In this document: piece by piece, positions 1 through 63,826 of the stretch | Layout: each line of letters starts with the position of its first letter | How positions within the stretch are numbered: the first letter of the stretch is position 1 | Assembly (NCBI GenBank): GCA_002256245.1 | Contig: NKIU01000001.1 | Coordinates: 186,001 to 250,000, forward strand | Source of the DNA: Pseudorhodobacter sp. PARRP1 | GTDB lineage: Bacteria > Pseudomonadota > Alphaproteobacteria > Rhodobacterales > Rhodobacteraceae | Direction of reading: 5' to 3' | Length of the DNA stretch: 64,000 nt | The notes under the pieces: generated by a model | The model's input: the letters and a program-made list of their open reading frames with translations, nothing else | Databases searched by the model: none | Told to the model about the DNA's origin: nothing | Position numbers and translations under genes: made by a program

Positions 1-40
1 GCAGGCGCGGCCCGATTTGGCGCGGGCCAAATCGGGCAAG
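1..40 (+). repeat. composite hairpin element, copy D (truncated by window edge)
   Basis: 40 bp identical to 57877-57916. Confidence 0.8.
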
Positions 41-61
41 AACCCCGAACGTCAGCAAGGA

Positions 62-8186: not shown

Positions 8187-8197
8187 CACTTTAGCCA

Positions 8198-8265
8198 CGC
8201 CGCCCCGGACTTGATCCGGGGCCTCATGGGATGCGCTTAGGCCGCCGATCCAATCCGGGGCGGCG
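8198..8265. repeat. dispersed palindromic repeat CGCCGCCCCGGACTTGATCCGGGGCCT with degenerate inverted partner
   Basis: identical 27-mer also at 22744-22770, 40222-40248 and inverted at 22787-22813. Confidence 0.8.
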
Positions 8266-8276
8266 CAGGGTTGCGG

Positions 8277-14916: not shown

Positions 14917-14932
14917 CCCATTCAGAAAATTT

Positions 14933-15369
14933 GCGCGGACGGCCTGTAAGCCGGATTTTGTCCCGGGGCTTACGCCCCTTGGATGACCATTCCTCTGCCA
15001 CCCGTGTTACCACGGGCAGTCAAGCTGCCAACCCGGGCCTCTGGGCTGAAGGTCCCTGTGGTGGTCTCCGCTATCGCCGCCAGCTTGCGCCGGCTTCAGT
15101 CGCGGACCTTACCACGCGAGGCCCCTATTCGGCATTGCTCCGGGTGGGGCTTGCCATACCGTCCTTGTTGCCAAGTCCGTGGTGGGCTCTTACCCCACCG
15201 TTTCACCATCGCCGCAGATCCGTCCGAGCGAACCCGAACACCACGGCAGTCTTTTCTCTGTGGCGCTTTCCCTGAGGTTGCCCTCGCCGGGCGTTACCCG
15301 GCACCCTTTCTTCATGGAGTCCGGACTTTCCTCGAGACTTGCGCCCCGCGGTCATCCAGCCATCCGCGC
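14933..15369 (-). ncRNA. rnpB: RNase P RNA (bacterial class A)
   Basis: reverse complement contains GAGGAAAGTCCGGACTCC and the 3' GACAAAATCCGGCTTACAGGCCGTC; P1 closed by GCGCGGATGGC/GCCGTCCGCGC. Confidence 0.95.
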
Positions 15370-22723: not shown

Positions 22724-22743
22724 GGCGGGTTTCCCAGTAACCG

Positions 22744-22813
22744 CGCCGCCCCGGACTTGATCCGGGGCCTCGTGGCCGATGCAGAGAGGCCCCGGATCAA
22801 GTCCGGGGCGGCG
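22744..22813. repeat. paired inverted copies of the CGCCGCCCCGGACTTGATCCGGGGCCT repeat
   Basis: arms 22744-22770 and 22787-22813 (27 bp) separated by 16 nt. Confidence 0.9.
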
Positions 22814-22901
22814 TGGGATAGATGGACCGGATACCGCCCGCACAGGCAAACACCCCGCCCGGCATCAAGGCACTTTAGCGCCGCCTGCCTTCCAACACTC
22901 T

Positions 22902-23023
22902 GGCAGGTGCCATCGCACCTGCCAGGCGCAACGTCGAAGCGCACCCCCCCCGGTGGCCAAAGCCACCGGGCAGCGCCCGCCCCGCCCTCGGCGGGCGCTT
23001 CTCGCCCGCCGGGTCAGGCGCTG
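22902..23023 (-). repeat. composite hairpin element, copy A
   Basis: hairpins 22902-22923, 22949-22970 and a 53-bp core 22971-23023 that matches 34500-34552 (reverse complement) at 49/53 positions by eye. Confidence 0.7.
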
Positions 23024-23276
23024 CCCTCTGTCAGCTAAGCGGAAGCGGGTTTCGGGGCGGCCATCCACATGGCCGGGGCCAATCCTCCACTGGAGGATTG
23101 GCTTTTCCCGACCAATGTGAAACTTGCAATCGCCCCTACATCACCCTTAACCGCTTGTTTACCGAATCATCCTACACCGGAACCCCTAAGGCTTACCCAG
23201 CCTTAGGGTGACGCTGCTTGCAACACGTGACCCACCCAACCCCAGCGCCCTGTCGGTTTACCGGCAGGGCGTTTCT

Positions 23277-26368: not shown

Positions 26369-27642
26369 TATGCCGCCAGACGCTTGCGGATATCCTCCAG
26401 CGAGGGGGCAGCCTCCACCGGGCCATAGAGCGCCAGCGCCGAATCCGCCGCCGCCAATTCGCCCGCATAGCGCCGCACATCGGCCACCGACACCGCATCA
26501 ATCCGCGCCACGGCCTCATCAACCCCCGGCACCCGATCATAAATCGCCAGCAGCCGCGCGATGCGTTCAGCCCGAGACGACGGGCTTTCCAGCCCCATCA
26601 GCATCCCCGCCTTGATCTGCGTGCGCGCCCGCGCCACCTCGGCCTCGGACATATCATCGGCTGCGCGCTTCAACTCATCCATGGTGATCTGGGTCAACTC
26701 GCCGATTTCTTCCGCCGAAGTGCCCGCATAAAGCGTAATCTGCCCGGCATCCTCATACGCCCCCGACTGCGCGAAGATCGAATAGCACAGGCCCCGTTCT
26801 TCCCGCACCTTCTGGAACAGCCGAGACGACATGCCCCCGCCCATCGTCATCGCATAGACCTGCGCCGTATAGACATCCGGGTGCCGATAGCCGGGTGCGT
26901 CAAACGCCATGGCGAAATGCACCTGCTCCAGATCCTTCACCTCACGCCGCTCTGATCCCTTGAACACCGCCGCCTGAAAGCTGGTCGCAGGCTTGGCCTT
27001 CATGCTGCCAAACATCGCCTCGGCCTGTTTCACAATTGCATCGTGATCCACAGCGCCCGCCGCCGCCAAGATCATCTGGCCGGGGCCGTAATGTTCGGCC
27101 ACAAAGCCCTGCAAATCCTTCCGGGTGAACGAAGAAACCCGCTCCTCCGGCCCCAGAATCGTGCGCCCAAACGCCTGATCCGGGTAGCTTGCCTCTTGCA
27201 GCCAATCAAACACGATATCATCCGGCGTATCCAAAGCCTGCCCGATTTCCTGCAAGATCACATGGCGCTCAACCTCGATTTCCTTTTTGTCAAAGGACGG
27301 GTTCAGCACAATATCGCCAATGACATCCAGCGCGAGGCCCACATCCGCCTGCAACACCCGCGCGTAATAGGCCGTCATCTCGCGCGAGGTATAAGCGTTG
27401 ATATAGCCGCCAACATCCTCAATTTCCTCGGCAATCTGCAAACTGGTGCGCCGCTTGGTGCCCTTGAAGGCCATATGCTCCAGAAAATGCGCGATGCCGT
27501 TCTGCGCCGGCGTCTCATGCCGCCCGCCCGCCATCACCCAGATCCCGGCGCTGGCAGACAGCAGCCCCGGCATGTGTTCGGTGACAATGCGAAAGCCGTT
27601 CGGCAAGGTGGTCAGGCGCAGACCGGCAGATGCGTGGCTCAA
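26368..27642 (-). CDS. M16 family zinc peptidase (processing peptidase-like)
   Basis: HFLEHMAFKGTKRR (HxxEH) and GGGMSSRLFQKVREERGLCYSIF. Confidence 0.94.
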   Translation of the reverse strand: MSHASAGLRLTTLPNGFRIVTEHMPGLLSASAGIWVMAGGRHETPAQNGIAHFLEHMAFKGTKRRTSLQIAEEIEDVGGYINAYTSREMTAYYARVLQADVGLALDVIGDIVLNPSFDKKEIEVERHVILQEIGQALDTPDDIVFDWLQEASYPDQAFGRTILGPEERVSSFTRKDLQGFVAEHYGPGQMILAAAGAVDHDAIVKQAEAMFGSMKAKPATSFQAAVFKGSERREVKDLEQVHFAMAFDAPGYRHPDVYTAQVYAMTMGGGMSSRLFQKVREERGLCYSIFAQSGAYEDAGQITLYAGTSAEEIGELTQITMDELKRAADDMSEAEVARARTQIKAGMLMGLESPSSRAERIARLLAIYDRVPGVDEAVARIDAVSVADVRRYAGELAAADSALALYGPVEAAPSLEDIRKRLAA

Positions 27643-33542: not shown

Positions 33543-34385
33543 TTGCGGCAGCCCCAAACAAAGGCCCCGACTTCCGTGACCCTGACGCTGCGTTTGCTGG
33601 CTGGTGCAGCCACCCTCTACCTGCTGATCGCCTTGGCGGTCTTTACGCTGCAACGCCGCCTGCAGTATTTCCCCGGCACCACGGGCACCGCGCCGCAACA
33701 GGTCGGTCTGCAAGGCGTCACCGTGATCGCGCTGACCGCGTCCGACGGCATTGCCTCGGCTCTGTGGTATGCGCCCGCGCAACCCGGTCAGCCGACACTG
33801 CTGTATTTCCAAGGCAACGCAGGCGAACTTTCCGACCGCGCCGACCGCTTTGCGTTCTACCAATCCATCGGGTTCGGCGTCGCATTCCTGTCTTACCGGG
33901 GCTACGGCGCCAGCCGCGATGCAATCACCGAACCCGGCCTGATCGCCGATGCCACCGCAGCCTATGATTGGCTTGCAGCCCAAGGCATCCCGCCAAGCCA
34001 GATCGCCCTTGTCGGTGAATCGCTTGGCACCGGGGTTGCCGTGCAACTGGCCGCAAAACGCAGCGTCGGGGCTGTGGCACTGGAAGCCCCCTATACCGCC
34101 ACCGTTGATATTGCTGCACAAATCTACTGGTGGCTTCCGGTGCACCTGCTGATGAAAGACCAATTCCGCTCGATCGACCATATCGCGCAGATCAACGCCC
34201 CGCTGCTGATCCAGCACGGCACCGCCGATCAGGTGATCCCCTTCGCCTCGGGCCAACGCCTGTTTGCGGCGGCAAAACAGCCGAAAACCTTCATCCCCCT
34301 GCCCGACCAAGGCCACGAGGCGCTGTATCAGCCGCAAACCTGGGCCACCGAGGCCGCCTTTATCATCGACGTGGCTCAGCATTAG
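33543..34385 (+). CDS. alpha/beta hydrolase (membrane-anchored)
   Basis: N-terminal TM, LVGESLGTGVAVQLA nucleophile elbow, GHEALY; exact start uncertain. Confidence 0.85.
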   Translation: MRQPQTKAPTSVTLTLRLLAGAATLYLLIALAVFTLQRRLQYFPGTTGTAPQQVGLQGVTVIALTASDGIASALWYAPAQPGQPTLLYFQGNAGELSDRADRFAFYQSIGFGVAFLSYRGYGASRDAITEPGLIADATAAYDWLAAQGIPPSQIALVGESLGTGVAVQLAAKRSVGAVALEAPYTATVDIAAQIYWWLPVHLLMKDQFRSIDHIAQINAPLLIQHGTADQVIPFASGQRLFAAAKQPKTFIPLPDQGHEALYQPQTWATEAAFIIDVAQH

Positions 34386-34499
34386 GAAGAATCGAGATAC
34401 GCGCGCCTGCTTTGGGCGGAGACAGGAAACGCCTTGCGTTTCCCCGCCCGCGTGTGCGGTTTCTCGCTGTAAACAGTGCCGCAATAAACCCACTGAGGC

Positions 34500-34620
34500 C
34501 AGCGCCCGACCCGGCGGGCGAGAAGCGCCCGCCATGGGCGGGTCGGGCGCTGGCCGGGCCATGCAGGCCCGGCAAGCCCAGCCGCATCTGCTCCGCATGG
34601 CGAAGGCAATGGCCTTCGCC
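34500..34620 (+). repeat. composite hairpin element, copy B
   Basis: core 34500-34552 within perfect 16-bp arms 34497-34512/34540-34555, then hairpins 34553-34573 and 34599-34620. Confidence 0.75.
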
Positions 34621-34744
34621 ACATAGCGCAAGGTGAATATCACTCCCACCCCAGACCTGACATCGCTGCAAGCTGGCCTTGCGATGGCCCGGCCCGCCAC
34701 ATAAGTTTGCCACAACCGGGCCAGTGTGGCCCCGAAAGGCCCCC

Positions 34745-36211: not shown

Positions 36212-36387
36212 CGTGGTGCGGCATGGGCGGTCTGCGGGATGTCGAGGCGGCTCTGCGGCATGGGCTGCAGAAGCCTCCGGCGGGGATATTTATGAACGGA
36301 TGAAGCAACCTTAGGTTGCTCTATGCACAAAATTCAATTTTCAAACCACACTATGTGGTAGAAATCAGCCAGAATCAGCGCATTGAC

Positions 36388-40053: not shown

Positions 40054-40221
40054 CGGGTATTCCTTTCATGCTATCATCCTGTGTCACCAACAGGCTGGCA
40101 GCGTTCTGGTTCCCAAATTGAGAAGGTCGGGGGCGAAGGCCGCGACCCTCAGGCAAAGACAAAGGCTCGCAGACAGGCTGCGTCATCTAGGCCAAAGCCG
40201 CGCCCCCAGCCCCCCTCGCAG

Positions 40222-40248
40222 CGCCGCCCCGGACTTGATCCGGGGCCT
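40222..40248. repeat. CGCCGCCCCGGACTTGATCCGGGGCCT repeat copy
   Basis: same 27-mer as 8198-8224 and 22744-22770. Confidence 0.85.
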
Positions 40249-40359
40249 CCTGGCCTCGCGCAGAGTTGTAAAACACGGTCAAAGGTTAATACTTCCTGAC
40301 CAGCCCTCAGAAGCGATTGATTTCATTAGGCTCGAAAATGGTCCCAACTCGGGACCGCC

Positions 40360-53042: not shown

Positions 53043-53231
53043 TCTGGCTTTGGTCCCAACTCGGGACCAAGGATGAAGTTATTTTCTTTCAAGTGGTTAG
53101 ATATTTTCGTTTACCAGGCATTAACATTTTGGCGGCGGCGCTGTCTGAGATGTTGAAGCCTCCGGCGGGGATATTTGGGCAGAGAGGATGACCAAGGCGC
53201 GGGTTTTTTCGAGCGCTTATCTAGAATAGAT

Positions 53232-55776: not shown

Positions 55777-55808
55777 GAAAAACCCCGAAACCAAAGGGCT
55801 TCGGGGCT
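55777..55808 (-). terminator. terminator hairpin in the metZ leader (SAM-II expression platform)
   Basis: reverse complement AGCCCCGAAGCCCTTTGGTTTCGGGGTTTTTC, stem followed by a T-run. Confidence 0.8.
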
Positions 55809-55819
55809 GATGACCCTGA

Positions 55820-55872
55820 CCCTCTTTAGCGGATTGTTTAACGTGGCCCGCAATTCGGAATAAAGCACCACC
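55820..55872 (-). promoter_or_regulatory. SAM-II (metA) riboswitch aptamer upstream of metZ
   Basis: reverse complement GGTGGTGCTTTATTCCGAATTGCGGGCCACGTTAAACAATCCGCTAAAGAGGG matches the SAM-II pattern (GGTGG...CCACGTTAAA...CGCTAAAG). Confidence 0.85.
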
Positions 55873-55992
55873 GGGGCGGCATAGCTTGCGGCGCGCGCGC
55901 GGTCAACCTTGGGTCGCAGATTTTGCGCACAATGCGGTGAAAATCGGCTACTATGCCCGGATTAGCACAAGTTTTTACATATGGAGATTACG

Positions 55993-57714: not shown

Positions 57715-57732
57715 TCGGCCTTCGAACCGAAA

Positions 57733-57757
57733 GAAAACTCTGCGGGGCAGAGTTTTC
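57733..57757 (+). terminator. hairpin after alpha/beta hydrolase
   Basis: GAAAACTCTGCGGGGCAGAGTTTTC. Confidence 0.65.
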
Positions 57758-57833
57758 CGGTTCGTTGCTCATAAGGCTGAAAGCCGTTGAGCAAGGGGTG
57801 TGGTGCCACAAGCCATCGCAACGGAAATCGGGG

Positions 57834-57912
57834 CGCGCCTGACTGGCGGGCGCGGAAACGCGCCTGCCGGGGGCAGGCAGGCGCGGCCCGATTTGGCGCG
57901 GGCCAAATCGGG
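57834..57912 (+). repeat. composite hairpin element, copy C
   Basis: core 57834-57885 (CGCGCCTG...CAGGCGCG closing arms), hairpin 57887-57912; 57877-57916 identical to bases 1-40. Confidence 0.7.
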
Positions 57913-57937
57913 CAAGACTGACAATCGTGCGCCCGTG

Positions 57938-63641: not shown

Positions 63642-63741
63642 CCAAAGGGTAGTGCCGCCTTGGGTGGCATCGAGCCACCACGCGGCGGCGCTGCCGGGAT
63701 CATGTCCTGCAGCGCGGGGTTAAGCGAAATCTGTTGATTTC

Positions 63742-63826
63742 ACCTGTTCTTAAATATCCCCGCCGGAGGCTTCCGAAGCCGGCCACAGGAGCCTCCGGCG
63801 GGGATATTTAAGAACGGGTGAAATGC
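63742..63826. repeat. inverted pair of the CTCCGGCGGGGATATTTAAGAAC intergenic motif
   Basis: GTTCTTAAATATCCCCGCCGGAGGCT and AGCCTCCGGCGGGGATATTTAAGAAC flank a short loop; related motifs elsewhere in the window. Confidence 0.85.

What the first reader, a model, noticed from the sequence alone, without database searches (positions are those of the whole stretch)
22902..23023. Composite multi-hairpin intergenic element, three copies plus one truncated
Seen directly: copy A (22902-23023) and copy B (34500-34620, opposite orientation) share a 53-bp core at about 49/53 positions. The core has closing arms (CAGCGCC...GGCGCTG) around an inner hairpin GGCGGGCG-AGAAG-CGCCCGCC. In both copies it is flanked by two further perfect hairpins whose sequences differ completely (GGCAGGTGC/GCACCTGCC vs GGCGAAGG/CCTTCGCC; CCCGGTGGC/GCCACCGGG vs GCCGGGCC/GGCCCGGC) while the pairing is kept. 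Copy C (57834-57912) has the same core-plus-hairpin layout with further sequence drift and a GAAA loop. Copy D is cut by the window edge (1-40, identical to 57877-57916). B, C and D all continue GGCAAG after the flanking hairpin. Preserved pairing with diverging sequence suggests selection on structure rather than passive repeat decay. B and C lie just downstream of + strand alpha/beta hydrolase genes. Inference: a REP/BIME-like family or a structured 3' UTR RNA.
Basis: partly seen in the sequence, partly recalled or inferred. Interest (0 to 1): 0.62.

Follow-up and report, generated by a model that had tools for sequence, protein, structure and literature searches.

The report
Repeated four-hairpin element at gene ends
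The finding is one corner of a family of at least 80 mobile DNA repeats in this Rhodobacteraceae genome, each folding into four hairpins just after gene ends, whose paired strands keep changing together; it belongs to a known kind of bacterial repeat but is an unrecorded and unusually well-documented variant.

Summary
The genome holds 53 scored copies of the A/B type and 30 analysed copies of the C/D type, a separate family with the same layout. Stem pairing is kept through matched double changes, across genera (H4) and among copies within this genome (C type: 22 of 58 pairs; 111 cells against 35 in shuffles, 0/500). Copies sit next to stop codons (47 of 83 between convergent genes, 4 divergent) in either orientation relative to the gene, which weakens the 3'-UTR-RNA reading. 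The A/B type is patchy: about 8 of 249 family genomes match convincingly. In a close relative several sites are empty; six are occupied in both genomes, but at three the element is inverted or of the other type. B copies end in terminal inverted repeats that coincide with TAG/TAA stops. A RAYT gene exists but is not flanked by the element, and RAYT presence does not track copy number. Rfam has no match. Best reading: a new composite REP/MITE-like mobile repeat family, mobilising enzyme unknown, whose hairpin arms are rewritten together and also constrained. RNA function is possible, not shown.

The parts
34383..34653 (+). Copy B, whole element (B subfamily) with its degenerate terminal inverted repeats; the left end coincides with the TAG stop (34383-34385) of the upstream alpha/beta-hydrolase gene
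34413..34450 (+).
34497..34555 (+). H2 core: closing stem GGCCAGCGCCCGACCC/GGGTCGGGCGCTGGCC around inner hairpin GGCGGGCG-AGAAG-CGCCCGCC
34553..34573 (+). H3 hairpin GCCGGGCC/GGCCCGGC; overlaps the last bases of H2
34598..34621 (+). H4 hairpin TGGCGAAGGC-AATG-GCCTTCGCCA, the most clearly covarying A/B-type stem
22900..23113 (-). Copy A, whole element (A subfamily)
22900..22925 (-). H4 of copy A (GGCAGGTGC/GCACCTGCC)
22949..22970 (-). H3 of copy A (CCCGGTGGC/GCCACCGGG)
22968..23026 (-). H2 core of copy A
23071..23113 (-).
57723..57917 (+). Copy C, whole C-family element
57723..57764 (+). K1 nested hairpin (outer CGAACCG/CGGTTCG, inner AAAACTCTGC/GCAGAGTTTT)
57765..57794 (+). K2 hairpin TTGCTCA..TGAGCAA with inner GGCT/AGCC
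57825..57894 (+). K3: AAATCGGG + GCGCCTG stem around an inner GAAA-loop hairpin; its 3' arm CCCGATTT is shared with K4
57886..57913 (+). K4 hairpin GCCCGATTTGGC/GCCAAATCGGGC; alternative partner of the K3 3' arm
1..41 (+). Copy D: 3' end of a C-family element that starts before the window (contig 24, 185843-186041)

Best explanation
This is a new family (two related types, A/B and C) of dispersed, non-autonomous, composite hairpin repeats of Rhodobacteraceae. It works like REP/BIME and MITE elements. Each unit is four hairpins in a fixed order. SHOWN: it is repeated at more than 80 loci in this genome; it varies from zero or a few to dozens of copies between related genomes; sites A, B and C and several others lack it in a close relative; it lies at gene 3' ends in either orientation; the stems change as matched pairs, both between genera and between copies in one genome. 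INFERRED: it spreads by a mobilising enzyme that recognises the folded single-stranded or cruciform hairpins, so copies with broken stems do not found new families. INFERRED: once resident, matched double changes come largely from template switching within a hairpin and from conversion between copies, with some purifying constraint on the fold. It survives mainly where insertion is harmless, just after stop codons and above all between convergent genes. The B subfamily burst through terminal inverted repeats, and its ends lie on TAG/TAA stop codons; at the three empty sites checked the stop was already TAG in the relative.
For: Copy number and dispersal. Same hairpin order in named Rhodobacter, R. 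capsulatus, R. viridis and Frigidibacter genomes, with each genome's own stem sequences. Patchiness: 20 of 249 family genomes at E<=1e-6, about 8 convincing; own genome 61 matches against 0-8 in 14 congeners. Empty sites in congener G007 at A, B and C and at L033 and L034. Covariation: H4/H2 across genomes 73 against 24 cells, 0/500; C family 111 against 35, 0/500. Location: 47 convergent / 32 tandem / 4 divergent against 9/45/9 in the window, Fisher p about 1.5e-7 for convergent. B ends on stops: TAG 22, TAA 8, TGA 2 against 8/25/31, p about 4e-8 for TAG. Six of six complete elements found in the G007 stretches surveyed lie at sites also occupied here, with two inverted and one type-swapped.
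Against: No mobilising enzyme is linked. The RAYT is not flanked by the element and also occurs in congeners with no detected element, and the three DDE_Tnp_1 loci lack the B-type ends. Target-site duplications were not clean. In two collinear orthologous C copies, stems diverge less than linkers (10% against 28%, p about 2e-5), which hints at a host-level or RNA role not required by this reading. Congeners were sampled at the species level, so active movement was not seen. At site B the neighbouring hydrolase gene is missing in G007 too, so that site alone is not a clean empty site.
Confidence: 0.62

Rival explanations
1. A structured 3'-end RNA: the element is transcribed as part of the mRNA tail and protects, processes or decouples the 3' ends of convergent genes, so selection on RNA folding keeps the pairing.
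For: Position just after stop codons; stems more conserved than linkers in two orthologous copies; one-sided G-U changes dominate in H2 on the H1-to-H4 strand and G-U exceeds A-C mildly in the C family; three-strand covariation AAATCGGG/CCCGATTT/AAATCGGG, as expected of alternative pairing.
Against: No orientation preference next to tandem genes (14 with, 18 against); absent from orthologous sites in the relative; no Rfam match; double changes mostly transversional rather than through G-U (71 against 35); no U-tract for intrinsic termination.
Confidence: 0.2
2. No selection at all: covariation is a mutational by-product, because hairpin arms are copied onto each other by replication template switching or converted from other copies, so neutral repeats stay self-complementary.
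For: A whole hairpin tip changed as a block at an orthologous site (L302 against G007); transversional doubles predominate; the CTCCAGTGGAG tip recurs in A-type H1, C-type K1 and a nested module; the mechanism is documented (PMC8794818).
Against: Stems diverge about three times less than linkers at two orthologous sites, which a purely mutational process does not predict; three-strand covariation needs more than one arm-to-arm copy.
Confidence: 0.25
3. The B subfamily is a classical MITE: terminal inverted repeats cut by a DDE transposase that targets YTAR, which in this GC-rich genome falls mostly on stop codons.
For: About 22-nt terminal inverted repeats (consensus TTAGGGTGGATCGACATTCACC) at fixed offsets; 30 of 32 adjacent stops are TAA/TAG; the stop was already TAG at the three relative sites checked.
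Against: No autonomous element with these ends among three DDE_Tnp_1 loci; inconsistent duplications; A and C types and other genera lack these repeats.
Confidence: 0.25
4. RAYT-mobilised REP/REPIN population of the standard kind.
For: A RAYT (NF047646, 132.9 bits, cut-off 80) is encoded in the genome.
Against: The RAYT is not flanked by the element; RAYTs occur in several congeners with no element match; no GTAG or CGTC tag at the hairpin feet.
Confidence: 0.1

Closest known systems
REP / BIME / REPIN elements (GTAG and CGTC superfamilies, PMC3733652; REPINs, PMC3116915)
   Same: Dispersed hairpin-forming intergenic repeats, mostly between convergent or tandem genes and close to gene 3' ends; patchy between genomes; a RAYT is present somewhere in the genome.
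   Different: Unit is about 200-270 nt with four hairpins in fixed order, not a 20-40 bp palindrome or a pair; no GTAG or CGTC tag at the hairpin feet; RAYT not linked.
MITEs of bacterial insertion sequences
   Same: B subfamily has terminal inverted repeats, a specific target context and many copies.
   Different: The repeats are confined to one subfamily; no parent transposase found; no clean target duplication.
Rhizobial intergenic mosaic elements and similar composite palindromic repeats (recalled, not tested here)
   Same: Mosaic multi-palindrome intergenic elements of alphaproteobacteria.
   Different: No sequence comparison was made.
Structured 3'-UTR RNAs / sRNAs of Rfam
   Same: Strong covariation of stems.
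   Different: No Rfam match; no orientation preference; absent from orthologous sites of a close relative.

Membership tests
REP (GTAG or CGTC superfamily) | Short 20-40 bp palindrome | tested here: not met
   Unit is four hairpins, about 200-270 nt.
REP (GTAG or CGTC superfamily) | Unpaired GTAG or CGTC tag at one foot of the hairpin | tested here: not met
   No such tag at any hairpin foot in the family consensuses; a GTAG occurs only mid-linker in the own B subfamily.
REP (GTAG or CGTC superfamily) | Intergenic, next to gene 3' ends | tested here: met
   47 convergent, 32 tandem, 4 divergent; most within about 35 bp of a stop codon.
RAYT-mobilised REPIN | RAYT gene flanked by the repeat | tested here: not met
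   RAYT at L159 has no element or strong hairpin beside it.
RAYT-mobilised REPIN | Copy number tracks RAYT presence | tested here: not met
   RAYT found in G002, G004, G005, G006, G009 and G014, which have no element match; G010, G011 and G013 have element matches without a RAYT match, but two of these are incomplete genomes.
MITE (B subfamily) | Terminal inverted repeats | tested here: met
   Repeats at fixed offsets in many B copies, degenerate in others.
MITE (B subfamily) | Target-site duplication | tested here: inconclusive
   A few copies show the same CTAA on both sides, others do not.
MITE (B subfamily) | Parent transposase with the same ends | tested here: not met
   Three DDE_Tnp_1 loci lack the ends; other transposase families were not searched.
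Structured cis RNA (3' UTR) | Covariation of stems | tested here: met
Structured cis RNA (3' UTR) | Fixed orientation relative to the gene | tested here: not met
   14 with, 18 against.
Structured cis RNA (3' UTR) | Transcribed with a defined 3' end | not testable with these tools
   No RNA-seq data available.
Rfam families | Match at gathering score | tested here: not met
   No element match.

The most novel reading that the evidence does not exclude
Resident copies are individually selected as orientation-independent gene-end devices. Each keeps a set of hairpins and, in the C family, a three-strand switch (AAATCGGG / CCCGATTT / AAATCGGG) whose three segments change together, while sequence, orientation and even element type at a site are freely exchanged. 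This would be a functional 'slot' between convergent genes refilled by interchangeable mobile hairpin cassettes.
Probability: 0.15. Interest if true: 0.8.

Novelty: new variant of a known kind. Interest (0 to 1): 0.52.

Why it matters
It adds an apparently undescribed repeat family, with a clear anatomy, to a bacterial family that includes the model Rhodobacter capsulatus. One genome carries dozens of copies whose stems have covaried, so it is a natural experiment for an open question: does hairpin covariation reflect selection on structure or template-switch mutation? It also warns RNA-gene hunters that strong covariation can arise in mobile repeats, and it offers a target (B-type ends on stop codons) for finding the unknown mobilising enzyme.

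Tried and rejected
Intrinsic terminators: no T-tract follows the hairpins, so rejected as the main reading. RAYT as mobiliser: gene found but neither linked nor correlated. DDE_Tnp_1 transposases as source of the B ends: three loci checked, no match; a genome search for the end sequence returned ten places with no autonomous element recognised. Rfam at permissive thresholds: only chance-level matches. Plasmid records: no match. Literature on Rhodobacter repeats: nothing on this family in the open library. G-U against A-C strand asymmetry as a test of RNA function: mixed between helices and not decisive. My first labels for C-family orientation next to tandem genes were wrong for minus-strand copies and were corrected; convergent and divergent counts were unaffected.

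Full report
WHAT IS THERE. The quoted core, hairpins and coordinates check out, and the three copies fold much better than shuffled sequence (z -5.5 to -6.3 for A and B on both strands and -5.7 for C on the plus strand). Searching the whole genome (G000, 4.35 Mb; window = contig 24, 186001-250000) with copy B gave 43 places of real similarity. A covariance model built from 40 copies of several genomes (R1) gave 61 matches in this genome, of which 53 were used as distinct A/B-type elements. Searching with copy C gave about 30 further places of a second family.

ANATOMY. An A/B element reads H1 (nested hairpin CGGGCGGA-ACA-GGAAACGC..GCGTTTCC-CCGCCCG) - linker of about 45 nt - H2 (the reported core) - H3 - linker of about 27 nt - H4. 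The same order is found in named Rhodobacter, R. capsulatus, R. viridis and Frigidibacter genomes, but with genome-specific stems: for example H4 is TGGCGAAGGC/GCCTTCGCCA here, TGGCAGGGGC/GCCCCTGCCA in other Rhodobacter MAGs, TGGCACAGGC/GCCTGTGCCA in another, and CGGCATGTGC/GCACATGCCG in a fourth. Copy A belongs to a divergent A subfamily. C and D belong to a C family (K1, K2, K3, K4) with a similar nested first hairpin and a related core.

COVARIATION. On 40 A/B copies from many genomes, H2 + H4 keep 96% of cells paired, with 73 double-changed cells against 24 in shuffles (0/500); the H4 helix shows it most clearly. Within this one genome the C family has 22 of 58 pairs with changes on both sides, 111 double-changed cells against 35, and a covariation score of 0.206 against 0.071 (0/500); sliding the partners destroys it. 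In the C family the 3' arm of K3 (CCCGATTT) is also the 5' arm of K4, and all three segments change together in some copies (CAATCTTG/CAAGATTT/AAATCTTG; AAATCTGC/GCAGATTT/AAATCTGC). Both alternative foldings are supported.

SELECTION OR MUTATION? Copies share ancestry, so counts are not independent events. Two findings pull in different directions. Double changes are mostly transversional (71 against 35 cells, 14 against 10 pairs), not the G-U-mediated path expected of stepwise RNA evolution. At the orthologous L302 site the K1 tip was replaced as a block, and the same CTCCAGTGGAG tip recurs in A-type H1, C-type K1 and a nested module. That fits template switching (PMC8794818) or conversion between copies. 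On the other hand, in the two collinear orthologous C copies (L292 and L302 against G007) stems differ at 26/248 sites and linkers at 37/132 (p about 2e-5), with 9 double compensations, 4 wobble changes and 5 breaks. So some constraint on the fold acts at resident sites.

LOCATION. A codon-usage gene caller trained on the window placed 83 elements: 47 between convergent genes, 32 tandem, 4 divergent, against 9/45/9 for the gene pairs of the window (Fisher p about 1.5e-7 for convergent). The window baseline is small (63 pairs). Most elements lie within about 35 bp of a stop codon. Next to tandem genes the orientation is neutral (14 with, 18 against). Published REPs sit in the same places (PMC3733652).

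B-SUBFAMILY ENDS. Only the B subfamily carries an extra terminal inverted repeat of about 22 nt (TTAGGGTGGATCGACATTCACC ... GGTGAATGTCGATCCACCCTAA), degenerate in many copies. The YTAR at its tip coincides with the stop codon of the neighbouring gene at a fixed distance: 22 TAG, 8 TAA, 2 TGA, against 8/25/31 in the window; A and C types show no such bias. At three B sites that lack this element in congener G007 (L033, L034, L021) the relative's stop is already TAG. The end therefore most likely landed on an existing stop and did not create it. A YTAR-targeting transposase is a natural guess; no such enzyme with these ends was found.

MOBILITY. In 14 congeners the model finds 0-8 matches against 61 here. 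In the family, 20 of 249 genomes match at E<=1e-6, about 8 convincingly (few candidates were scored per genome, so copy counts are lower bounds). Congener G007 aligns along the window and lacks the element at A, B and C (the hydrolase gene beside B is missing there too), and at L033 and L034; further C-type sites have short gaps where this genome has an element. In about 1.24 Mb of G007 plus one extra locus I found six complete elements, all at sites that also carry an element here: three C-type copies shared (L292, L302 and L303/L333), two A-type copies in opposite orientation between the same genes (L194, L196), and one C-type where this genome has A-type (L037). By sequence the inverted pairs are not each other's closest copies, so replacement or re-insertion is likelier than simple inversion. 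Elements in a more distant congener, G003, were not at shared sites where this could be judged.

MOBILISING ENZYME. A RAYT gene is encoded (NF047646, 132.9 bits), but it has no element beside it, and RAYTs occur in congeners without any element match. The enzyme remains unknown.

VERDICT. A new variant of a known kind: a composite, multi-hairpin, REP/MITE-like dispersed repeat family of Rhodobacteraceae. That it is a dispersed, amplifying, structure-conserving repeat is shown. That a hairpin-recognising enzyme moves it, and that template switching or conversion drives the paired changes, is inferred. An RNA or gene-end function is possible but unproven.

Noticed in passing
L041 (contig 13, about 27351-27400), L333, L106, L119, L061, L040; 7 of 397 family genomes: A second structured module of about 85 nt, GGTGATGAGCGAnnAGAAA[covarying hairpin]TTTCnGCGAAGAACGCCCGGCC..GGCCGGGC, sits inside the core hairpin of both C-type and Frigidibacter A/B-type elements at the same structural position, and outside such elements in three viral contigs (L335-L337). 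It may fold as a junction with a fixed internal loop; not in Rfam.
   Followed up: partly
8192-8266, 22738-22816, 40216-40258: Separate palindromic repeats CGCCCCGGACTTGATCCGGGGCC, resembling known alphaproteobacterial REPs; one lies beside copy A.
   Followed up: no
36263-36304, 53148-53189, 63737-63824: Another repeat family (GGAGCCTCCGGCGGGGATATTTA..GAACGGRTGAA), in one place as a near-perfect inverted pair. In G007 a relative of it stands where this genome has a B element (L021 site).
   Followed up: no
L159:1336-1848 (contig 28, about 59.5-59.9 kb): A REP-associated tyrosine transposase (RAYT) gene with no obvious REP beside it; matches to the same family in many congeners.
   Followed up: partly
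14931-15367 and 55805-55881: RNase P RNA (RF00010) and an alphaproteobacterial SAM riboswitch (RF00521), both minus strand.
   Followed up: no
L064, L079, L050, L099, L111 and neighbours: In several Rhodobacter MAGs the element occurs in head-to-tail tandem, often at contig ends, suggesting arrays that break assemblies.
   Followed up: no
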